Shown here: positions 3,967-60,100 of the stretch, piece after piece | Numbering within the stretch: the first letter of the stretch is position 1 | Layout: each line of letters begins with the position of its first letter | Assembly (NCBI GenBank): GCA_023374025.1 | Contig: SIJG01000002.1 | Span: 1,523,790-1,587,789, forward strand | Direction: 5' to 3' | Source: Heterodera schachtii | Taxonomy: Eukaryota; Nematoda; Chromadorea; Rhabditida; Heteroderidae | DNA: 64,000 nucleotides | Notes under the pieces: model-generated | Database searches by the model: none | Told to the model about the DNA's origin: nothing | What the model saw: only the letters and a program-made list of their open reading frames with translations | Translations under genes and position numbers: made by a program

Positions 3967-4010
3967 TTTTTAATAATTTTGCTATAAAGCAATGATTAAG
4001 TAAGGAACCG

Positions 4011-4328
4011 ATGGTCACTCAGCCGCTTATTCCGAATCCTAGTACTTATTTCTGTGCTTAATCCCAGCATGGGCATGTGCTTGCGACACTTTAATGCTTG
4101 CGACACTTTCAAAGCTATGGTCACTCAGCCGCTTATTCCGAATCCTAGTACTTATTTCTGTGCTTAATCCCAGCATGGGCATGTGCTTGCGACACTTTAG
4201 TGCTTGCGACACTTTTAAAGCTATGGTCATGCAGCCGCTTATTCCGAATCCTAGTACTTATTTCTGTGCTTAATCCCAGCATGGGCATGTGCTTGCGACA
4301 CTTTAGTGCTTGCGACACTTTCAAAGCT
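4011..4328. repeat. 106-bp tandem repeat, 3 copies
   Basis: Copies at 4011-4116, 4117-4222 and 4223-4328 differ at only a few positions (for example CACTCAG versus CATGCAG). They lie between the transposase start and the right terminal repeat. A 20-bp direct repeat beginning GATTAAGTAAGGAACCGATG also occurs at 3816 and 3994. Confidence 0.9.
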
Positions 4329-4493
4329 AATTTAGACTTTCTCAAACCAGACTTGCACAAATATACAAAGCGCTAATCTTTTTCAATAACTTATACTTCA
4401 TGAACTTGTAACAGATTATTTCCAGTCCTAGTACATCCTAATACTTACATAACCCCTCACCAGTCCACGGAAGCATCGTAGGGATTTTGTCAT

Positions 4494-4575
4494 GTAGGGA
4501 TTTTGTCATTTTTGGCTGAGTAGGGATTTTGTCAATTTTTGCTGAGTAGGGATTTTGTCATGTAGGGATTTTGTC
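4494..4575 (-). repeat. MULE terminal inverted repeat, right arm
   Basis: Exact reverse complement of 1414-1495, with repeated GTAGGGATTTTGTC units. One more partial unit lies outside at 4478-4490. Confidence 0.85.
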
Positions 4576-32080: not shown

Positions 32081-33739
32081 AAAAGGCAAAAAGCAAAAAG
32101 AAAGCAGCTGTTCAGAGGGGGGATAATTATGAGTAAATCATTGCCAAAAAAGAAAGTGCCAATTGGAAGGGAAGGCGAATAATTTGGCACATTTTAAATT
32201 GGGCCGTAAATGAAAAGGGGGAAAAAAAAGCAATTTTTGGGGAAGGTAATTCGAGGCAATTAAAAACAAAGCGAATAATGAGACAGGGAGATAATATGGT
32301 AGGTAAATCAATACGGTAATGAAATTGGACGGACATTTAATTGTCGGAAATTATCAAAAATTAAAAAAAATGGGAGGAAAAACGGAAAATAAATAAAAAT
32401 TTATTTTTTTTTTTTGTTTGTATTCGTTTGCTCGGCTTTTGCAGCGCTCGCTTCGATCCGATCCGTCGGTTGGCCTTTGAAATGGCAATTACCGACGCCG
32501 CCGTGCCTTTGCCATGTTCCCCACTGCTGCTCCCCCCCCCCCCACTTTTTTCTCATTGCCACCAATTCCCGTGCCAATTCCCTCGCCCATTTTCCCCCCA
32601 TTAATTTGTCGCCCAATAATTAGCATTGGCCCAAGGGGAAAAACTCGATTACCATTTTATAATAATTATCCATATTTTTGTATTATTAGCTGTTGCCCAT
32701 AGCGATGCAAAGGCAAATTGGGGGCAAAAGAAAGGAAAAGAAGGGCCGAAGGACAGAAGAAAAATTGAAAAATGAAATCGAAATTTGAAAAACGAAAATA
32801 TTTAAATAATTTTTAAAAGAATAATTATTAATTTTAAATTAATTGTTTAATTATCTTATAAAGTACTTTTCGCTCGAGCATTTTTTTAATGATCCGAGCA
32901 AAGGGCGGTGAAATCAGAAAAAAAAAGCGAAGGAAAAGGCCAATCGAGAACTTAAATTTTATTTTATTTAAAAATAATATTGTTATTTTTAATTAATAAT
33001 TTAAAAAAGAAATGATTTTTTTACTCTTTTTTGTTATTTGCCATTCCCGTGATACGGCACATAAAACGCCGGCATTGTGCCATCCTTCCCGTCCCCCAGT
33101 ACCAAATGACAAATTTAATCCATTCGTTTTTCAAATATTTATACAATAAATAATATGAATCTTCGCACAATAAATACGATTATACAAAAATATTTTAAAC
33201 GATTGCTGGCTGGTGAAAAGCAATAAATGTAAATAGAAAAGTAATAATTGGCATAATTAACATTAATTAACACCAAAAAGTAATTAATTAAATTTTTGGA
33301 ATGAGAGAAAACGAACGAATCGACCTGCTGAAAAGAGAACGGACCTGTATTATAATAAAGTAGAGAAGAAGAGTCAAACCGGTGGGATAAGAAAATTGAA
33401 ATGGAATAGGCAAATAAATTAGAAACTAATGGAATAATTAACTATTAATCATTGCTAATTTGTGAAATTATTAGAAATAAACGATGGACGGACACGAAAA
33501 GTGAAAAAACAAATTGGGAGTTTTGGGAGTTGAGGGGGGGGGGGGGGGGGGCTGAGAGAATGGGCCGAGAACTCGTCTCAATTTCCGTAATTTCCGCTTT
33601 ATCTCTCTGCTTCACCGTTTTCCGCTTTATCTTTTCGAGGCTTCATCGTTTCCTTTTCTGCTTCTCCGTTTTCCGCTTCATTCCAGCTTTTCCCTTTCTG
33701 CTTCTTCGTTTCCATTGCTTTTCCGCTTTGTTCATTCTT

Positions 33740-34012
33740 TCCCTTCCCGCTTTATCTTTTCGGCTTCATCGTTTCCTTTTCCGCTTCTCCCTTTCCGCTT
33801 CATCTCTCTGCTTCTTCGTTTCCGCTTTTCCGATTTAATTCAGTTTTGCCTTTTCCGCTTTATCTTTTCGGCTTCATCGTTTCCTTTTCCGCTTCTCCCT
33901 TTCCGCTTCATCTCTCTGCTTCTTCGTTTCCGCTTTTCCGATTTAATTCAGTTTTGCCTTTTCCGCTTTATCTTTTCGGGGCTTCATCCTTTCTTTTCCG
34001 CTTCTCCCTTTC
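33740..34012. repeat. 108-bp pyrimidine-rich tandem repeat, about 2.5 copies
   Basis: The word GCTTTATCTTTTCGG recurs at 33749, 33857 and 33965. The surrounding 450 bp is almost pure C/T with a CTTTTCCG motif. The period is a multiple of three, so long open frames exist by construction on the plus strand. Confidence 0.9.
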
Positions 34013-47247: not shown

Positions 47248-50200
47248 TTAAGATGCCGACGCGTTGTCGCCACCGGTGAAGTCGTGCTGAAGTTGTTGGA
47301 GAGTTTCAATCTGAAAACCGAAGATTTTAAAAGGGGGGAGTTGGAGAGAGAGAGCCCTTAACAAGCTGATTGTGAGAGCAATTCGAACTTTAGGTTTTAA
47401 GAATTAAATTCGACATAACCAATACTCATTACTAATTTAAGGCATTAAATGCGTTTTTAGGTTACAGAAAAAAGTCTACAAAACTGCGTTTAAAAAATGC
47501 AGTTTCCTCCAACAATTTGGGCTTAAGTTCCCTCCGCCCTTTTCCCCATTTTTCAAATGCAAAAAAAAACGTGGCGACGAGCGACAGACAAACGTTGAAA
47601 AAAGAAATTTAAAAAAAAGATTGCACAAAAAGCCGTCAACAACTGCTGGCCAAACTTTTATTTTTTTGAAATGTGCATTATCCACCCAAATTAATGTAAT
47701 ATTTGTATAAATTAATTAATTATTTTATCAACACACGGAAGCAACGTACAGGTGCAAAAAAACATCAATTAGTCCAAAAAAATTATCCGATGAAACATTT
47801 TAAAATAAAAGTGCAGCAAGAAGAAAAACCAAATTGACATTAATTGCGTAGTTTGAAAAAATTGTTTACGCTTCAGTAACACCTTGCGTCAACCTCGTGA
47901 CAATTTAGCACACCGTAAGTTTTAAGCCAAATTCTTTGAAATTAAAATTAATAAAGCGGGTAAGAATTTTAAAATTTGATTTTTTAAAATTTACTAGAAA
48001 AATTTAAACCAAGTAATTTGAATTATATCCAAAGTAAAAGAAAAAATAAAATGATTTAAATGGAAGTGCTCTCACAGTCAGAATATTTTTAATAGAAATT
48101 TGCCTACCATTTGGTCAATTTCTTGGAGATCCTTCGTTGAGCCGACGGTCTGTTAAATTAATATTTTTACATTTATGTTGCAAAAAATACGACGAGAATG
48201 AGCTACCTTGACTTCACTTTCGTCATTTTCGATGATGGCATTATTGGAAACGCTTCCGGCATTTGAGGGGTTGACACGAACACTCGCGTATTGGGAGGAG
48301 GAAGAAGAACATCCGTAAGGTGTCGCTATGGCATTGGATGACGGCACAGCCAAATTCACACGGGGCTGAACCATCGCACGGCCAACCGGCACTTTGGCAC
48401 CGTTGTTGTTGTAGGCAAACTTATGGACTGTGAGAAGATGAAGATGATTAGTGAATGTTTGACAATTGCTCAAAAACAAAGAAGAGTAAAGTAAGAGAAT
48501 CCTTCAAAATCCAAATAATATTTTTTAAGAAAAAAAGGCGATTCTGGCTTTTCCCACGCTCATTATCAGTTTACGGGCTTGGCTCACAATAATTACCGGA
48601 AGTTGGTGTTGTTTTTTGCGCTTGCGATTGCCCTGTGGCACTTCTTATGGTGGACGGTGAGGGGCTGGCGCCTCCGGCAACGCCGCCACCGCCTCCGACA
48701 TAAACAATGGGTCGAACAATGTGTGCCATCCTTTGCTGTTGGTGGTGCTGATGCTTAGCTGCTTGTTGTTGTTGGTGTTCTCCTGCCGATGTAACTCCGT
48801 GCACCGCTGCGTCACAATTCCCGCCGTCCCCATCCGCCGTCGTCCCATTCACAAAGGAAAGCATTGCAGCGCCGCCTGTTGCATTGGCTCGTCCGCCAAC
48901 GGTTTGATAGCCGTCACTGTCATTTCTGTTGTACTGCTGTGCATTTGCTGCTGCTGTTGTTGTGCCTCTGTTTGCAGCCGTCAACGATGGCGGAGGTGGA
49001 AGCGGTGGCGTGCCACCAGCCCCTGGGGCAGAAACAGTGCCGGAAAACTGATGCCGCTGTTGCGGATTATGTGGCGAATCATGCGGTGATCCAACAACAC
49101 CATTGGACACTGCTGACCCACTGACGGTAAAGTCCATTTTGGCAATGGGCTAAACAAATACATAACAATGCGGTAAATTGAATATTCAGACATTAAACTT
49201 TTACAAAAAAATCCAACAGTCGACCTGTCTGTCCACTCGTGTGTACACCACGTGCGCATTACGCGGTGTCATTGGTGTGCCACCCAAATGTTGTTGCTGG
49301 CCGACCTGCTGCTGCTGGTGTTGTTGTTGCTGGTGAATGTGCAATGGTTGAGGCGCCGAATTCATTTCCAAACTGGCAGACGAATTGTGAAGATGATAAC
49401 GGTTTGAGTGTCCGCGGGGGAGTGTTTCGACCGAATCCACTGAATTTACTTATACATTAAAATTTTAATGTTCTATTGTTTGTATGTTATGTAAATATTT
49501 TTAACACGCGTAAAATGGGTTAGAAAATGTTAGAATGTTATGAAAAATTTGAAGGCCAATAAAAAAATAAACACGCATAAAATCGCGGATGCGTTTCAGA
49601 ACAACAACCAAATATGCAAGCAACGCAGAACTGATTTGTGAGGAACACAACGCTCGCATGAACACTCCAATGGCACATACACTTACTAGCCAAATCAACG
49701 GCTGATTGCGGCGGCACAATTTTTGATCCATCATCGGATTCGTTCAGCTTTTCATCGGCGGCATTTCCTTGTTGCTTTTTCATTGTTGTGTTAGCATTTT
49801 CAATCTCCGTTTCTTTCTTCTGCTGCCGATTCGGCTTAACCGCATTGGCATATTTATCATCTTCTTCAGCGTCATCGACCAGCGAATTGTCAATGAACGA
49901 AATCCCTTTGTCGTCTTTACTTCCGTTCCATTGGCGTTTTGTTTTGCTCCATTTGTTGTAGCCGCCGTTGTCGTCATCGTCCGACGAGACAATGACCAAT
50001 TTGGAAGCAAAATTTACGCTTTTCGTGGGTGCTGTTTGCTTTCGTGTCACCGCTGTTGTTGCTTCATAATGAGCGGTTGTTGTTCGCTTTGCTTGTTTGA
50101 CTTGTAACGGCATCGATGGAAGGCCAATGCCAATTCGAAAGCGTTGCTGTGGCAGAACGGCTTCGTGTTCGTCTTGTTCGTTCAAAAACGCTGCAGTTCG

Positions 50201-53200
50201 CTCAATCGAATTAGGTCCACTTGATTGCCGAGGTGTATGGCCAAGACGAGGAGAAATGCTCAAATCCAATGCGTTCAACGAGCTAAGGTGTCCACAACAA
50301 TGTGTTCGAATGCCGGCCACTCGTTGCTGGCATGGAGAACGAGTGCCATACGGAGAGTCACTTCGCCGTCCAAATTTCGTTTCGGCAATATTTTGCGCTC
50401 CTCCCCTAACACCAAAATGGTCAGGCTTGCCAAAAGCATGGCAATTGTGTTGCCAATATTGGTTCTGTTGTGGGCATTTGTTGTTGGTGGCAAATGGTGG
50501 CGACATCGTGGTCGAATTGGACGGACAAATGTGTGGCGGCAAGGAGTTGCGGTGCAACTTGCGACTTTTGTTGCCACTTTTTGGCGAGTCACCGACGGTC
50601 GTCATCGAATGGAATGACTCCATTAGGGAGCCGCCCCCGTAAAATTCACCTCCTCCGACAGAGATGCCTTTCTCTCTGTCTTCAGTCCTCCCTGATATGC
50701 AATTATAATATCACAAAACAGCCAATTTAATCGATTTCCCAGAATATTTGTATGATTAAATACATCACCAAGGGGCAACATGTCAACAATTCGAGGACAA
50801 AGAAAAAGGTACTCATTAGAAGAGAAAAGACGAAATGATTACTTCAAAATAATAATTAATAAGACATGTCACTAAACTACCGTGGCGTTGTGTCGCCGCA
50901 TGGTACGCATTTTGCTGGTAGTGTTTTGGCGTTATACATTCCATTTGGGCAGATTGAAAGTTAGGCCCGCCTGTTGCGTTTGCGGGCGCAAAGAAGGCCC
51001 TCTGTTGTCCGTCAATTAGAAGAATGCCCGTCTCGTCATCAACGGACGAACCATAACCCTTTAAAATGTTTAGCAAATGGATCAAATGGCCAAACAAATT
51101 TGGGGAAAAAATATATATTCACGTCAACATTGGCAGCATTGACAATAGTGGCAAAACGTGCGCCAGTGTTTGGTGCAGAAGTTCGCTGCTGATGGACCAG
51201 CCAAAGATCGTCGTCCAACTCGGCAACGGCGGACGGAGTGGAGACGGACATTTTGCGGCCGGGGATGTACGCCTGTTGGTGGTGTTTGGACCGTTTGTTG
51301 CGCTGCTCTTTTTTGCTTCTCTGTTGCGGTCGATTGGCCGTTGCAGCGGTGGAGGCGTTATTTTTGTTGTGATAGAAACAAAGTGAGCACAGAGCAATGA
51401 ACAGCAGCAGCACAACGACGGCGACAACAATGCCAATGAGTACGAAGACCAAGTTGGACCTGTACAAGCAGTGCAAAATGACAAATTATATGCATTTGAG
51501 AAATGTTTGCCAACCCACCTCAATCCACTTAAAAACTGGCCCATTAGAATCTCAAATGCTTCCGAATTGCTTCCGGCATTGACGGAATTCCTTGGTCCAT
51601 TCGATGTCGGATTGGAAGTGAAAGTGTCCGCGGTGGTGAAGCTGGTCACAGGCGTAAACGGACCGTAACCCTTCACATTGCGGGCTTGCAGCTTGAAATG
51701 GTAGGTGAGGCGGGGCCGAAGATTGCGCAGTTCAATCGAAAGTCGGTCGCCCTTCACACTGTCCATAATCCAATCCCTGTCAGGCAAATGTGGCCGATCC
51801 GAAAAGAGCACAATGTATTCTGAAAAGCAATAAAAATTTGTACAAATGTTATGTTTCCGGATTTAAGGCTTTTAAGCCATTTCAAATACAGTTTAAGAAA
51901 GGAATTTATTATAAGAAAAATCACTAACAAAATCATTATGTAATAAAACTAAAAAAGATTAAAATTTGAATGTTGCAAAAACAGCACAAACAATAAACAA
52001 AACAATAAGGACCTTGAATTTCTCCATTTGCATATTTTGGCGGTTGCCATGTAAGCGTTATCGTGCCGGGATCAGCATTCTCGTGTTGGTTGTTGAACTG
52101 GGGACCAATGACGGTTAAATCACGTGGTGGCGAGGAGGGCGGTGCCGGATGAGTTCGGTTGAGCGCGTTCAAACTCCAATGAGAAGATTGGGCCAGTCGG
52201 ACAGCAAATTCGTACAAAGTGTCCGGCCTCAGTCCCTCGAAGATTTGCTCAGTTTCTGTGATGTTCAGCTGCTTATGCTGAGACTCATCAGAATTGCTGA
52301 GAAAAATCCGAAAATTAATTTTAAAAATTTTGTAATTATTCGTACCTTATTCCGTATTTGATGGTGTACATTTGGTTAAATGCATTCTCATTTGGGTCAA
52401 TCCATGAAAGTCGAATTTGTGAGGACGAAACTGTCTCTGCAACTACGCCAACTGGAGCCGATAAACCGTTGGAATTGCTTGGCGGCTGTTGTTGTCCACC
52501 AAATCCGGCAAAAGTGGACTTTGGATCAGAGATCGAAGCTGACTTCGACGAATGGACGCCATACGAAGACGTTCTTTAAGTACAACCAAATAATTATTTA
52601 TTTTACGTGTCCATGAAATGATAAAAGGAAAGAAACACCACCGACTTGACAGTCTCATAGATGGGGAATCCGTGCCCAATTTTATTGAACGCCCGCAACG
52701 AAATCACATATTCACGGTTCGGTTTGAGCCCTCGAATAGTAAAATGCCGAGCCACCGGTTCAACCGTCGCCTTTTCCACGTCCGGTATGTTAATACCCCA
52801 ACCGATCTTTGGAAAAAAAATATGGCTGTATGATTGTTAAATCGCCGACCAACCAAATATCCTCTGATCAGCACATTGTCATCCCGCGGTGGTAACCATG
52901 ACACTTGAACCGAGTCGTGGGTCGCCATGACCAACAGCTCCGATGGCGCACCAATAATTTGAGACTCCTCTTTTTCCTCATCCTCCAGCGCTTCATTTTC
53001 ATCCCATTCGCTCGATGAATCAGTTTCGTTCTGGAAATTTAAAATGATTGTAATTTGAATCATGACATTTATAGAAAATTTCTAGACCTGGTTAACAGCT
53101 CCATTTGACGCAGTGTAAACGGCAAAAATCAGCAATAAAACGTGCGAATAATGTAATATCATGATGAGAAAAACAACTTAAATTGGGGGTTCAATTTGTT

Positions 53201-53306
53201 AACCTAATTATCCTGTCGAAAATCACTGTACCTGATTATCTTTTGCACATGACACATTGAAAATGGCAAAAACAATAAATAAAATATGTGAAAAATGCGC
53301 TGCCAT
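47248..53306 (-). CDS. unc-40: UNC-40/DCC/neogenin-type netrin receptor lacking Ig and FN3 1-3
   Basis: First exon 53088-53162 or 53232-53306, then 52854-53030, 52637-52806, 52346-52573, 52013-52296, 51537-51819, 51123-51459, 50881-51058, 49687-50691, 49225-49439, 48597-49149, 48207-48427, 48108-48149, 47248-47310; 3831 nt, 1276 aa. Order: signal peptide, acidic linker, FN3 (SWLPPRDDNVLIRGYL to YVISLRAFNKIGHG), FN3 (SSSQIRLSW to TLYEFAVRLAQ), FN3 (ITLTWQPP to DWIMDSVKGDRLSIELRNL and FKLQARNVKGYGP). These match DCC FN3-4, -5 and -6. A transmembrane helix (NLVFVLIGIVVAVVVLLLF) follows. The tail has a P1-like DDLWLVH, Gln/His/Pro-rich segments and a C-terminal IETLQQLQHDF that may be P3. DCC normally has four Ig and six FN3 domains; none of the Ig or FN3 1-3 region is present before the signal peptide. 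Confidence 0.9.
52013..52524 (-). repeat. unc-40: Inverted segmental duplication, unc-40 copy
   Basis: Covers most of unc-40 exon 4, the 49-bp intron and all of exon 5. The matching copy is 55115-55628 on the opposite strand. Over the FN3-5 start (about 100 nt) I count only a handful of differences. The introns share GTAC-A-TAATTACA at their 5' ends. Confidence 0.9.
53088..53162 (-). other. unc-40: unc-40 alternative first exon 1a (signal peptide)
   Basis: Twenty-five codons, start MILHYSHVLLLIFAVY, end NQ, donor CAG|GTCTAG, phase 0. Confidence 0.75.
53232..53306 (-). other. unc-40: unc-40 alternative first exon 1b (signal peptide)
   Basis: Also exactly 25 codons, start MAAHFSHILFIVFAIF, end NQ, donor CAG|GTACAG, phase 0. 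It resembles exon 1a residue by residue (M..H.SH.L...FA.....), so the two arose by tandem exon duplication. Either can splice to 52854-53030. Confidence 0.75.
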
Positions 53307-54059: not shown

Positions 54060-55992
54060 ATGTCGAAAGAACTCTATCCTCTTTATCCATCCAATTCAAG
54101 GGTTATTGACCTGAGAAGTAAAATAACTCCTGCGCCTATGTCAAAAACCAAGCAGTTTTTTAATGAGTTGCAAAGAATTGCTGGATCATCGCCAACAAAG
54201 GTAAATTACTTTTCCATTACAAACCTAACCATAAACAACAACAAAATGACATACTAAATTAGCCAAAATTAGATCATTAATTAGATATAAGCATTAGTTG
54301 CAAGGCGATATACTGATAGAAATCATTTTTCTTTTAAGTCATCATCGTCGCTACACATGAAAAGGGCTTACGAAAGTGAGCGTTGGTTTAGCCCACGGGT
54401 CGATTCTGACCAGGCAGACACTTCGGGACCGCCTCGTCGTTCAATGTTAACACAATCAAGACTTCAATTATTGTCGGCACAGCGAGGACGTGAAACGAGA
54501 AAACCATATTGGTTAGTTTTACTATTTAAATTCGGTATTGTTATAGTTGTTAACTGGGAATAACTTGTGACGAAGGTTTTGACCTTAAACTTATAATTGA
54601 CACACTCACAATTTTAGGCGTTGTCCGATGCCATTAGCAAGACCCATTGATACGGAAATTACGCAGCCTTCACTTGTTGACATTATTGCTACGCCGTTAG
54701 CGCGACAGGGGCCGATTAAGCCATTTCGACACCGAGAGCCGGAGACAGGCAGAAAAACGAATTCGTTTGCTGTTGATGAAGATATCTTAACCGTTGAGGA
54801 AAAAGAAAAGGTACCTTTTCTGAAAAATATTCCATAACAAAGTATCAAAATAGGAGTTGATGAGCAAAGTGCAACCTCTGAAAGCACCGAAAGCTGGTTT
54901 TCTTGGAACGCCTCCTCCTCCTCTTGTGGATTTGTTCGAATTTTCGGACATTATTATGCGTGGACCTCAACTAGAAACAAAAGACATTGGAACGCAAATT
55001 TCATTCCCTGAACCGAGTTCCGCTTTTGGTGGACAACAACCTGCAAGAAATTTCAACGGGTTTTCTGCGCCAGTGAACCTTGTTGCGGCCACTCAAGTCC
55101 CGTTCTCTGAACCACAGTCAACTTTTGTGGGATTTGGCGGACAACAACAACAGCCGCCAAGCAATTCCAACGGTTTGTCGGCTCCAGTTGGCGTAGTTGC
55201 AGAGACAGTTTCGTCCTCACAAATTCGACTTTCATGGACTGATCCTAATGGAAGTGCATTTAACCAAATGTACACCATCAAATACGGAATAAGGTACAAC
55301 TAATTACATTGTGATTATTTACATTTTTTTCTCAGCAACTCTGATGAATCTGAACACAAGCAGCTGAACACCACGAAAACCGAGCATATCTTCGATGGAC
55401 TGAGGCCGGACACTTTGTACGAATTTGCTGTCCGACTGGCCCAATCTTCTCATTGGAGTTTGAACGCGCTCAACCGAACTCATCCGGCACCGCCCCCCGC
55501 GCCTCCGAGCGACTCAATTGTTAATGCCAATGGCCCTCAGTTAAACAATCAACAAACGGACACTGGTCTCGGAAACATTGTTCCGCTTGCATGGCAACCG
55601 CCGAAATTCACAAATGGCGGAATCCAAGGTTCTTTATTATACAAATATTTGTACAGTCGGTAATTGTAAGCTTTTTCTTTTTAAATATCCTCTTCCGATA
55701 TCAAATACACTAAAACTGATATTTAAGGACAATCAGAATCGAATCCTATGCCATTTGGTGGGGGATTTTCATTTACGACTACTGTTCCTCCAGCAGCTAA
55801 CGGTCCTTTCCAATTTGGTGCTGCACCTCCAGTGGCCAACGGAAATGTGTTCCAGTTTGCTGAGACGACTGATTGTAAGGCAATTATTACTTTCTGTTAG
55901 CATTATGAAATAATTTAGCTGCTGTTTCTACGAATGTTCGACATGGTGTTACGGCAAGGAAATTGCTGCACGCTCGAAGGAAGAAGCGTTGA
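54060..55992 (+). CDS. FG-nucleoporin-like protein with embedded UNC-40 FN3 exons (chimeric)
   Basis: Seven in-phase exons: 54060-54200, 54339-54511, 54618-54810, 54854-55293, 55336-55628, 55728-55874, 55919-55992; 1461 nt, 486 aa. The N-terminal half is basic/proline-rich (VIDLRSKITPAPMSKTKQFF, RRSMLTQSRLQLL, VDIIATPLARQGPIKPF). FG-type motifs follow (SAFGGQQP, FVGFGGQQQQPP), then an FN3 domain nearly identical to UNC-40 FN3-5 and the first half of FN3-6, then more FG motifs (PFGGGFSF, PFQFGAAPP, VFQFAE). The C-terminus ARKLLHARRKKR resembles the basic end of NUP153. The nucleoporin call is from these features only. The FN3 part is a duplication of the neighbouring gene, conserving intron position and phase. 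Expected location would be the nuclear pore basket, where an extracellular-type FN3 domain is out of place. Confidence 0.7.
55115..55628 (+). repeat. Inverted segmental duplication, nucleoporin-gene copy
   Basis: Counterpart of 52013-52524. Similarity begins at STF-GFGGQQQ and ends at the exon 5 donor; the following introns are unrelated. Confidence 0.9.
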
Positions 55993-56243
55993 TTGCATTC
56001 AATGTTAGAAAAATCACCGGTTTTGTTTTTGTTCGTTAGAATATGTTATTTTCATGGAATATTATGTCCAGGAAAATAAATTTATTTTTGATTTTTTTGC
56101 GAATAAATTGCTGAAATTCTGTTGTTGTGTTTCTTTTGTCGGCCGATAGGTTAGCATGTTTTGTAAATGTTGTGCATTTTGACATAAAACGAAAAGGTAT
56201 AAATAAACGCAACTCCTCCCCATCTTAACCTAATTCATCCAGG

Positions 56244-56711
56244 GGTAATACTGTCGATGGTACCCCCCCTTTTTTGAAAAAAATTATTTTTGTTTTCAAA
56301 AGACATAAAAGCATGTTTCCTAGGGTTTTCGGGGTCGCTGATCACGAATCCGGAATCTATTCCGACCAATTCCGAACCCCGGACCTGAATTCGAACCAAA
56401 GTTCGAAAATTAAAATTTTCCGAATTTCAGATTTTTCGTTCAAAACCGGCTAAATACACTGAATCAATTAGGAACTCATTAATACTTCAATAAAAAATTA
56501 TTTAAACCATTTAGGATCAAAAATCTGAAATTCGAAAAATTTTAATTTTCGAACTTTGGTTCGAATTCAGGTCCGGGGTTCGGAATTGGTCGGAATAGAT
56601 TCCGGATTCGTGATCAGCGACCCCGAAAACCCTAGGAAACATGCTTTTATGTCTTTTGAAAACAAAAATAATTTTTTTCAAAAAAGGGGGGGTACCATCG
56701 ACAGTATTACC
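56244..56711. mobile_element. 468-bp fold-back MITE with 8-bp target-site duplication
   Basis: Two 193-bp arms (56244-56436 and 56519-56711) are reverse complements with about one mismatch, separated by an 82-bp loop. Ends are GGTAATACTGTCGATGGTACC and its complement. The 8-bp direct repeat CATCCAGG flanks both ends (56236-56243 and 56712-56719), as produced by hAT-type transposases. No coding capacity. Its near-perfect arms indicate recent origin or insertion. Confidence 0.92.
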
Positions 56712-56719
56712 CATCCAGG

Positions 56720-57172
56720 CATTTGATTACGACGACGGCACTCATTGTGCCGTGGATGAGTTGGGCATAAATATTTATCATCAAAAAAAGAAAACATTTT
56801 AATATTTATTTGATAGATTCTGGCCCAAATGATCAATAGGGCTGCAAAAATATGGCAACGAACGCAATTTCGGGGACTGATTTTGAGAAGTCAGAAAAGA
56901 ATGTTTTTTAGTTTTGGCGTTGTGTTCTTTTGGCTAGTTTTTTGAACGCTTCCCCCCCCCCCCCCTATTGAAGCGGCCCTTTTGACCCATCAAAATTGGA
57001 GAATTTCCTTGGAAAAGCATTTTATTTGCTATTGCAACCTTATTAATCACTCTGAGCAGTGATCAGTCTGATCAGAAGTGGTCGTTTTCTCCTCCGTCCC
57101 CATGGCATTGGCATTTTCTCGTGTCTTTTTTTCTCTGCCGTCTCTTCCATTTGTCCTATGCTCTGTGTCCTC
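56720..57172. other. Intergenic between MITE and astacin gene
   Basis: Contains a C-tract (56952-56964) and AT-rich DNA; probably the astacin 3' UTR. No gene seen. Confidence 0.4.
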
Positions 57173-60100
57173 TCATCTCCGCCGCTTCTCTTCCGCCCTC
57201 TCCGTTTTTTCCGCTTCGTTCTCCGCGTCGTCGCGCGTTTCCGTTGCGTTGCCGCCGCAACGGCCGCACGTGCGGGGGCAATAGGAGCGCATGATAAAGT
57301 AGAAGGAGATGCGCTTGCAATAGTCGCGGAACTGCGGGCAGTCCAAAAAGTGGTCGCGGCATCGTCCGCCACCGCCCGTCCGCCGGCGGCTCACTTTGGC
57401 ACAAAAATTAATTAACCAATTCCCTAATGCCGTTGGGAGGAGGAGGGGATGAAGACTGATTGTAATTTGTGAGTGAAAAATGCCGTCCCCCAATTTGGAA
57501 AACTAAAATGTCAATGAGTGATTTGCGGGTCTCATGGCGTACAATGGGCAGTTCGTACAATAAAACATTTGAGGAAGCCTAAGCTAAGCCAAAGCCCAAG
57601 TTAGGCCGGAGCCTAACTATTGATGGTGTCTGTTGCACGGATGTGGCATAGCCCACACATTTTTATGGTCCTTTTTTTGCCCCAAAAATTCATATGTCCG
57701 CGCATTTTTTCGCCATTCCGCCCGCTTCCACTCACAATGTCCCGCTGTTTGCTCCCCGCTTTCGCGCGTCTCTTTCTCTGCAATTGCGCGTCGCGTGGTC
57801 GTCACCAAAAACGCCCCACTCGGCGGCCCACCGCCACCCAATTCTTCGGCATTTTCTTCCCCCTCCGCCTCCTCGTCGCCGGGGAGCACCGGTGCCGTTT
57901 CCGTGCCGCCGTCTTCACCGCCTACTTCCACAAAAGGCAACGTCGGCGGTCGATGTGTGCTGCTCGGGGAGGTAAGAGGCAACTGATTGTTGTGGTTGTC
58001 CAGCTGATGACGGTCCCCAACAGTTGAAGGCCCCGATGACGTCATCTTCCTGCGGGTTGAATTCAGATTTGGCACTTTTGGCGTTGTGCCTTTCTCGTCA
58101 GCCTACCGTTTCCGCCATGGGCTGAAACGGCGCGCCGAACCGAACATTCCCCCAGAAGTTCTGCTTGTGCTCTCATGGCGCAGCTTGCAACGGTACAGTT
58201 TCATGATCTAAAGTTTTATAAATTACCAAAGACAATTAACAAAAAAGCGTTTGTTGGTTTATGGTTAGACTACCGTAACCCCCCGTATCCTTTTTGATAT
58301 TCCATGCCCGATTATTATTAATTCCATGAAAACGAAGCATTCGGTCATGACGTGACGACATTCTATGTAATTAGTCCCTCCCCCCTCATTTACCTTTGCC
58401 ACGTCCATTTCACTGAGTTCCATCGCTGTGCCGATTACATTTGTGAACTGTAAACATTCGCATTATGAATCCTTTACATAATCATTTTCAATAAATCATT
58501 TAAAAATGCATTTAATGATTTTTAAATTAAAATAAAAAGCCATTAATTTTATGACTGTGCTGCTTGCTAACTTCGTCAACAACTGCTTCCAAAGTGTTGC
58601 GACCGTTTCGACTGAATGCCGACGACCCGTAATGCATAATTGACCTGAAAGATGACAGCAAAGAGTTTAATAATGCCATGATAACTTATCAGTTAAAACA
58701 TATCAAATAGACCTGTAATCGTACGGCTCGCCAAGTGTGTCCTGAATTGCCGAGGAAACGATGTCAAACTGCGAGTCCATCCCTGGGAAAGAAATAATTA
58801 AAAACTATGGATTAACTAGATATTTAATTTATTTTTTTATGATTAGATTATTCCTTTAAACATGCCGGGCAAAATGTTCTCCCATCGGATGACAATGTGT
58901 TCGTCTCTGTCTTCATTTGCTTTTACAGTGTTACCGTACGCCCACCATTACCGTACCTGCCCGGCTGTGTTCGTGCCAAAAGCCCAGTGAATGCATTAAC
59001 TAATTGTAAGAAAGAGAAATATTTTTTGTTAGAATTTATGGTTAGTGTTCTTTGTAGCTGAAAATATCAAGAATTGAGACCGAATCCCCCCCCCCCATAA
59101 CTCCGTGAATTTAGGCCGACACTTTTTGATCCTAATTAAAGGGTAATTAACCGAAAATGAACAACAAATTTAATTGCCCAGTGTTATATTTCTGACTCAA
59201 ACATTTTTTTCACTTCGTGTGTTATCGTTTCGTTGAACAGACAGCCGCGTCCCAGCGACAGCTCCTGCTTTCCGCCTGTTCTGCCCACCTGTGAATAGCA
59301 TCTGATCCGGGAAGGGGAGGGGAATGGAATTGGCACGGCACAAATGCCATTTTTTGAGCGATGTACGCAGGGGAAATGCCGCTTTGAATTCTGTGGGTAT
59401 TTTTTGGCGATTAATCCCGATTCTTTTTTAGCCCTTTTCCAATTTTTTGATCGGGTTGGAATCATTTGTAAAAAGCATTCTGAATTTCCTGGCACCCAAG
59501 CGACCGTGCCCAAACATCCCGGTCCGCTTCGGTCGTGCCCAAATGTCCCGGTCCGTTTTCGGGCCACATAAAGCATTGCCATTTCAGTCCCAGTTTTCTT
59601 CTGTTCCAGCCCACCCGTTGCCCTTCACAATGCTCAAATAGTCCGTTTCGCCGCTTCGCCTCGGTCTGAAACGGATGCAGCCGAAGGTGCGGCGGCGGTA
59701 CGTGCGAAAGACGCGCTGCAGAAGACGAGCCTCACTCAGTGCTATGTGTGTGCCCAAGGCAATTGTCGGGGTACGGTCGGAGGAGAGCAAATACGGTATA
59801 GACTTACGTACAGAATGCCACGTCCAACTCGTACGGTACAACGCCTTTGGGCCTGAACCGGGGGAAGGCGATCAATGTATTTGATAGCACACATGTGCGA
59901 CCTTTTATTCAAAATCTTCCGATCAGATCTGCTGATTATTTACCGCTGTGCCCTGACTTTTATGCCAATTTTTACCATTTTTCATAGTGCCAATGCCAAT
60001 TTTTTCGGGACTCTTTCTAAGAAGGCACCACCCTTTTCTCCCCTGTTGGTGATTAAATTTTCTGATCTAATCTGTTCCACAATTCTCTTCATCAATTACC

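What the first reader, a model, noticed from the sequence alone, without database searches (positions are those of the whole stretch)
54060..55992. Nucleoporin-like gene carrying an FN3 domain copied from the adjacent unc-40 gene
The gene keeps an open frame through seven phase-consistent exons. Between its FG motifs it carries two exons (with their intron) almost identical to unc-40 exons 4 and 5, on the opposite strand 2.6 kb away. The start of FN6 is included but cut in half, and the FG end with an ARRKKR terminus continues after it. That gives an apparently expressed chimera of a nuclear pore protein and an extracellular receptor module. High identity suggests a recent event or ongoing gene conversion between the inverted arms. 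I know of no nucleoporin with an FN3 domain of this origin.
Basis: partly seen in the sequence, partly recalled or inferred. Interest (0 to 1): 0.88.

Follow-up and report, generated by a model that had tools for sequence, protein, structure and literature searches.

The report
Nucleoporin-like gene with captured receptor domain
In a cyst nematode, a gene that looks like a nuclear-pore protein has taken up a folded domain from its neighbour, the netrin-receptor gene unc-40, and keeps it in frame; this looks like a real and unusual gene chimera, but whether the domain does anything is not known.

Summary
At 54060-55992 (+) a seven-exon gene reads 486 aa without a stop; its middle is a copy of FN5 (plus a stub of FN6) of unc-40, next door on the minus strand. 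A Heterodera schachtii protein in the databases (niasHS_006523) has the same chimera with six amino-acid differences, so an assembly artefact is unlikely. Seven related predicted proteins (two Globodera, two Meloidogyne, two Ditylenchus, one unnamed metagenome record) carry no FN3, so the piece went from unc-40 into the other gene. In C. [quoted passage not shown] here the pair is head to head, so position supports an npp-7/NUP153-like host gene, though sequence tests for that family found nothing. AlphaFold models the FN3 as a folded bead in a mostly low-confidence chain; Foldseek's best match is FN5 of human DCC. Constraint on the copy is suggested, not proven; expression could not be tested. 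In passing: Heterodera unc-40 seems to lack its Ig and FN1-3 ectodomain.

The parts
54060..54200 (+). nucleoporin-like gene, exon 1 (start ATG; conserved N-terminus)
   Evidence: 81% identical to G. pallida P0002 residues 1-48
54339..54511 (+). exon 2 (ERWFSPR...PPRRSM motif)
   Evidence: 78% to P0002 47-96; motif conserved in the alignment
54618..54810 (+). exon 3 (YWRCP motif onwards)
54854..55293 (+). exon 4: native part to about 55000 (matches P0002 184-229 up to 54997), then unc-40-derived linker and first half of FN5; exact border inferred
55025..55074 (+). extra, more diverged copy of the unc-40 FN4-FN5 linker
   Evidence: 42 of 53 columns identical to unc-40 exon 4; 0 of 2000 dinucleotide shuffles reach the score
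55101..55634 (+). main copied block: end of unc-40 exon 4, intron, whole exon 5, first six bases of the next intron
   Evidence: 453 of 542 columns identical
55144..55238 (+). near-identical tract 1 (94 of 95; gene-conversion candidate)
55336..55628 (+). exon 5: second half of FN5 and cut FN6
55397..55495 (+). identical tract 2 (99 of 99; gene-conversion candidate)
55728..55874 (+). exon 6, FG/FxF segment
   Evidence: 48% to P0002 320-362
55919..55992 (+). exon 7, basic C-terminus RHGVTARKLLHARRKKR, stop
   Evidence: 71% to P0002 368-388; AATAAA at 56075
52346..52573 (-). unc-40 exon 4 of this model (linker, first half of FN5): donor
52013..52296 (-). unc-40 exon 5 (second half of FN5, start of FN6): donor
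47248..53162 (-). unc-40 gene model, 14 exons, 1279 aa: FN4-FN6 by alignment to G. pallida UNC-40; signal peptide and transmembrane stretch by eye
   Evidence: 893 of 937 aligned residues identical to H. trifolii P0011
53307..54059 (.). stretch between the divergent genes
   Evidence: C. elegans unc-40/npp-7 promoters overlap (passage of PMC9453034)

Best explanation
The gene is the tylenchid npp-7/NUP153-like FG-protein gene, head to head with unc-40. In the Heterodera lineage, after its split from Globodera, a partial inverted duplication put the end of unc-40 exon 4, its intron, exon 5 and the next splice donor inside an exon of the neighbour. The copied splice sites and a matching phase keep the downstream FG/basic end in frame, so the predicted product is one protein: N-terminal part, folded FN3, cut FN6, FG segment, basic tail (shown by sequence and model only). 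The copy diverged for long (Ks about 0.8) while short tracts were overwritten between the inverted arms by gene conversion (inferred from the identity pattern). Most likely function: an ordinary FG nuclear-pore/basket-type protein in which the FN3 is a tolerated, perhaps mildly constrained, spacer or binding module (inferred; not shown).
For: Open frame, splice sites, phases. Same chimera in H. schachtii P0001, 460 aa, 6 aa differences. fn3 in 1 of 6 family proteins scanned (P0001) and in 0 of 7 relatives without P0001. FN5 is in place in UNC-40 of all 7 relatives that I aligned, some with gaps, and G. pallida UNC-40 has a like linker. Of 31 aa differences between the copies, unc-40 agrees with G. 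pallida UNC-40 at 23, the copy at 3, neither at 5. Tracts: Ks 0.04 and 0 against 0.82 outside; longest identical codon run reached in 1 of 20000 permutations, top two together in 0; silent codons only: 159 and 44 of 20000. In the codon alignment the three gaps are 1, 2 and 1 codons; the intron differs 42 vs 49 nt. FN3 block-mean pLDDT 80-97, most of the rest below 55; top Foldseek hit DCC FN5. [quoted passage not shown] elegans; in Ditylenchus destructor the relatives of both genes list a contig of 204655 bases.
Against: No transcript or protein data. No Pfam or PDB match names the native part a nucleoporin. A neutral copy is not firmly rejected: P(nonsynonymous differences no more than observed) at omega 1 was 0.008, 0.033, 0.10 with equal mutation shares and 0.15, 0.36, 0.61 if the copy took 30% of mutations. 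The exons outside the tracts (80% identical) are no better conserved than the intron (79%, plus 7 gap columns). The DNA alignment also places a compensating pair of one-base gaps at 55251-55254. An open frame could be kept for the C-terminus alone. 'Same contig' in Ditylenchus rests on equal contig lengths; 'head to head' in C. elegans is inferred from overlapping promoters.
Confidence: 0.75

Rival explanations
1. Assembly artefact: the second arm is a misassembled or duplicated piece of unc-40.
For: Inverted repeats 2.6 kb apart can confuse assemblers. I saw no reads.
Against: P0001 shows the same chimera with 6 aa differences, which suggests a second assembly or allele; most of the copy outside the tracts is diverged (Ks 0.82), which a misjoin does not make; both arms span 3.6 kb, while published H. 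schachtii PacBio data have fragment N50 16 kb (passage of PMC9582021) or mean 10.2 kb, N50 17.25 kb (passage of PMC11817004).
Confidence: 0.03
2. The FN3 stretch is spliced out: the real messenger joins exon 4 to exon 6 from an earlier donor and the copy sits in an intron.
For: GT sites in the fitting phase exist (55028 score 3.2; 55172 score 4.9) and the used donor 55874 scores only 3.4.
Against: Donors 55293 and 55628 score 7.1 and 7.7 in the same crude matrix (built partly from them); skipping exon 5 alone (293 nt) breaks the frame; the frame is kept over the whole copy; the P0001 model includes it, and the annotation of PMC11817004 used RNA-Seq and Iso-Seq (passages; that niasHS belongs to that paper is inferred, the tag was not found in its text).
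Confidence: 0.12
3. The copy is a neutral passenger: part of the protein, with no function of its own (overlaps with the best explanation).
For: Neutral simulations only weakly disfavoured; 23 of 26 polarised changes fall on the copy; exons no better conserved than the intron; FN6 is a half domain.
Against: omega outside the tracts 0.22 (bootstrap 0.10-0.40); FN5 still matches PF00041 and is modelled well.
Confidence: 0.4
4. The native gene is not a nucleoporin but another low-complexity protein.
For: No Pfam or PDB match; only 2-8 FG per protein in 7 proteins counted; no RanBP zinc ribbon at the locus.
Against: FxF/FG segments, basic end, and a place beside unc-40 like that of npp-7 in C. elegans.
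Confidence: 0.25

Closest known systems
Chimeric partial gene duplicates of C. elegans (PMC2728529, passages seen)
   Same: Partial/chimeric structure, adjacent loci, inverted orientation.
   Different: Here the piece lands inside an existing gene and adds a domain of another compartment; the copy is old and partly homogenised.
NPP-7 / NUP153 (nuclear basket nucleoporin)
   Same: Position beside unc-40, FG/FxF segments, basic C-terminus (the last recalled for NUP153).
   Different: Short (relatives 293-550 aa, some models perhaps incomplete), no zinc ribbon seen, no detectable family match, and an FN3 in Heterodera.
FN5 of DCC/neogenin/UNC-40
   Same: Sequence origin and predicted fold (best Foldseek hit 2edd).
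   Different: No signal peptide or membrane anchor seen in the chimera (by eye); expected to be intracellular.

Membership tests
FN3 domain (PF00041) | Profile match over the curated cut-off | tested here: met
   43.7 bits vs 25, residues 278-357 of the 486-aa product
FN3 domain (PF00041) | Beta-sandwich fold | tested here: met
   Predicted only: seven strands, block-mean pLDDT 80-97 in P0001; Foldseek
NUP153/NPP-7 | Family profile match (Pfam) | tested here: not met
   No Nup family among matches of 7 relatives or of the chimera, both at E up to 10
NUP153/NPP-7 | RanBP-type zinc ribbons (defining feature recalled) | tested here: not met
   6 matches in the assembly at E 0.1, none on this contig
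NUP153/NPP-7 | FG/FxFG repeats | tested here: inconclusive
   2-8 FG and 4-9 FxF per protein in 7 proteins; some FG of P0001 come with the unc-40 linker
NUP153/NPP-7 | Neighbour unc-40, divergent | tested here: met
   Window arrangement; overlapping promoters in C. elegans
NUP153/NPP-7 | Localisation to the nuclear basket | not testable with these tools
   needs cell biology
NUP153/NPP-7 | No other NUP153 (PF08604) gene in the assembly | not tested
   request not answered four times
Inverted partial (chimeric) duplicate | Piece of one gene plus unique exons, opposite strand, nearby | tested here: met
Gene conversion between paralogous arms | Clustered identity beyond chance, also at silent sites | tested here: met
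   equal rates along the gene assumed

The most novel reading that the evidence does not exclude
A nuclear-basket protein has recruited FN5 of its neighbour, a netrin-binding domain in DCC, as a working folded binding bead, and gene conversion keeps a nuclear-pore protein and a cell-surface receptor evolving in concert.
Probability: 0.12. Interest if true: 0.8.

Novelty: new variant of a known kind. Interest (0 to 1): 0.52.

Why it matters
It shows how a gene can gain a domain from another cell compartment through an inverted duplication of its neighbour, with donor, recipient, approximate breakpoints, a sister-genus 'before' state and traces of later gene conversion all visible. It would also let one test whether a folded domain is tolerated inside a disordered FG-type chain.

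Tried and rejected
Recent event: rejected, Ks about 0.8 outside the tracts. FG protein as donor of the FG-like linker in unc-40: disfavoured, G. pallida UNC-40 has a like linker. Naming the native part by Pfam or PDB: nothing. RanBD1 label of P0002 (source name): no RanBD found at E 10; 4 RanBD matches in the assembly lie on other contigs. Other copies of the host gene: none found, 3 of 3 matches at this locus. The foldback element at 56223-56732 as cause of the duplication: no evidence. A bootstrap of omega for FN5 alone came out unsorted because of undefined values and is not used. Literature: searches (1, 1 and 3 papers, listings only) showed none that by title or start of abstract treats an FN3-bearing nucleoporin; only open-licence papers are held. 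One search (unc-40, cyst nematode, netrin; 12 of 283 listed) showed none on Heterodera unc-40. C. elegans npp-7 = T19B4.2 is recalled; the term was not found in the library. One search was partly wasted: its alignment had a 47-aa exon as first row.

Full report
What is there. The window lies in a 178.5-Mb, 356-contig assembly. Size and the protein P0001 (99% identity over 95% of the query, H. schachtii niasHS_006523) point to Heterodera schachtii (published: about 179 Mb in 395 scaffolds, passage of PMC9582021); this identification is an inference. The gene reads through seven exons to 486 aa. P0001 begins 26 residues later, but G. pallida P0002 shares the longer N-terminus. Window and P0001 differ at 6 residues: 49, 111, 204, 218, 245 and 261; only 261 lies in the main copied block, in its linker.

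The copy. The block 55101-55634 aligns in inverted orientation to 52535-52007, 453 of 542 columns. It comprises the end of unc-40 exon 4, the intron (42 vs 49 nt), all of exon 5 and six bases beyond its donor. A further, diverged piece of the same unc-40 linker lies at 55025-55074 (42 of 53 columns; 0 of 2000 shuffles). Two places in the assembly match the block, itself and unc-40; the search with P0002 gave 3 matches, all at this locus.

Direction. One search gave 8 proteins (7991 candidates scored): the chimera P0001, five family proteins P0002-P0006 and two others, P0007 (neogenin-like) and P0008, that carry FN3 domains. fn3 was found in 1 of 6 scanned, P0001. One search added two Ditylenchus proteins; 0 of the 7 relatives without P0001 carry fn3. 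The FN4-to-membrane part of unc-40 matches 233 proteins, 120 of them listed; all 7 that I aligned over FN5 have it, some with gaps. At 31 differing residues, 23 show unc-40 and 3 the copy in agreement with G. pallida UNC-40, 5 neither. At those 3 sites H. trifolii UNC-40 shares the state of the window's unc-40, which hints that the copy predates the split of the two species; the hint is weak, because at two of the sites D. destructor UNC-40 has the same residue as Heterodera unc-40.

Age and conversion. By Nei-Gojobori counts two tracts of 32 and 33 codons have Ks 0.04 and 0, Ka 0; the 91 codons outside have Ks 0.82, Ka 0.18. I chose the tract limits after seeing the data; the permutation test does not use them. 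It assumes equal rates along the gene; restricted to 121 codons with the same amino acid in both copies, 159 (longest run) and 44 (two longest) of 20000 permutations reached the observed values. An old duplication plus later conversion fits; the direction of conversion is open.

Constraint. omega outside the tracts is 0.22 (bootstrap 0.10-0.40), but simulations with a neutral copy reach the observed count in 0.8 to 61% of runs, depending on mutation share and transition bias (120 runs for each of 18 settings, 6 of them neutral). Exonic bases outside the tracts (222 of 279) are no better conserved than the intron (33 of 42, plus 7 gap columns). Gaps in the codon alignment are whole codons, though the DNA alignment also places one compensating pair of one-base gaps. 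So the stretch is probably translated; constraint on FN5 for its own sake is possible but not proven.

Structure. AlphaFold2 on P0001 with 13 rows: mean pLDDT 53.8; confident only at about residues 251-350. Foldseek's best of 670 hits at E 0.001 or less is human DCC FN5 (E 5.1e-9; rmsd 9.9 over the aligned columns), and the top 19 are all DCC or neogenin entries. The UNC-40 rows in the alignment help this outcome, and Foldseek also uses sequence.

Host gene identity. [quoted passage not shown] elegans. Here the two genes are divergent with about 750 bases between the upstream signal-peptide exon of unc-40 and the ATG. NPP-7 is named as NUP153 of the basket in PMC10355831 (passages). Against: no profile match, no zinc ribbon here, and the search for another NUP153-family gene did not complete. 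I therefore say npp-7-like by position, not a proven NUP153.

Comparison. In C. elegans about half of young duplicates are partial or chimeric, and newborn ones are often adjacent and inverted (passages of PMC2728529). The present case is of that kind, with the unusual result that an extracellular receptor domain sits in a protein without an evident signal peptide.

Verdict. Very probably real, unusual, largely explained in origin; function open.

Noticed in passing
47248-53306 (-): unc-40 here encodes signal peptide, FN4-FN6, a membrane stretch and tail only. The Ig1-4/FN1-3 part of G. pallida and D. destructor UNC-40 found only weak matches (24-38% identity) elsewhere in the assembly (22 of 37 and 28 of 50 candidates scored). 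H. trifolii P0011 has the same short form, M. javanica P0069 a similar one. A netrin receptor without its Ig ectodomain deserves its own study.
   Followed up: partly
53306-53232 and 53162-53088 (-): Two signal-peptide-like exons in tandem, both 75 nt and followed by GT, resembling each other and, by eye, the G. pallida UNC-40 signal peptide (the second matched it at E 0.048).
   Followed up: partly
56223-56732: Foldback element (234-nt arms, 93% complementary, 42-nt loop) just after the gene; 92 matches on both strands with 40 of 2468 candidates scored: a MITE-like repeat family.
   Followed up: partly
1414-1495 and 4494-4575: 82-nt perfect inverted repeat, 3 kb apart, enclosing a 106-nt tandem repeat at 4006-4329.
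   Followed up: no
57173-57502 (-): Open frame with a cysteine pattern like a ShK-type domain (recalled pattern, not scanned).
   Followed up: no
33731-33946: Two 108-nt tandem copies, 95% identical.
   Followed up: no
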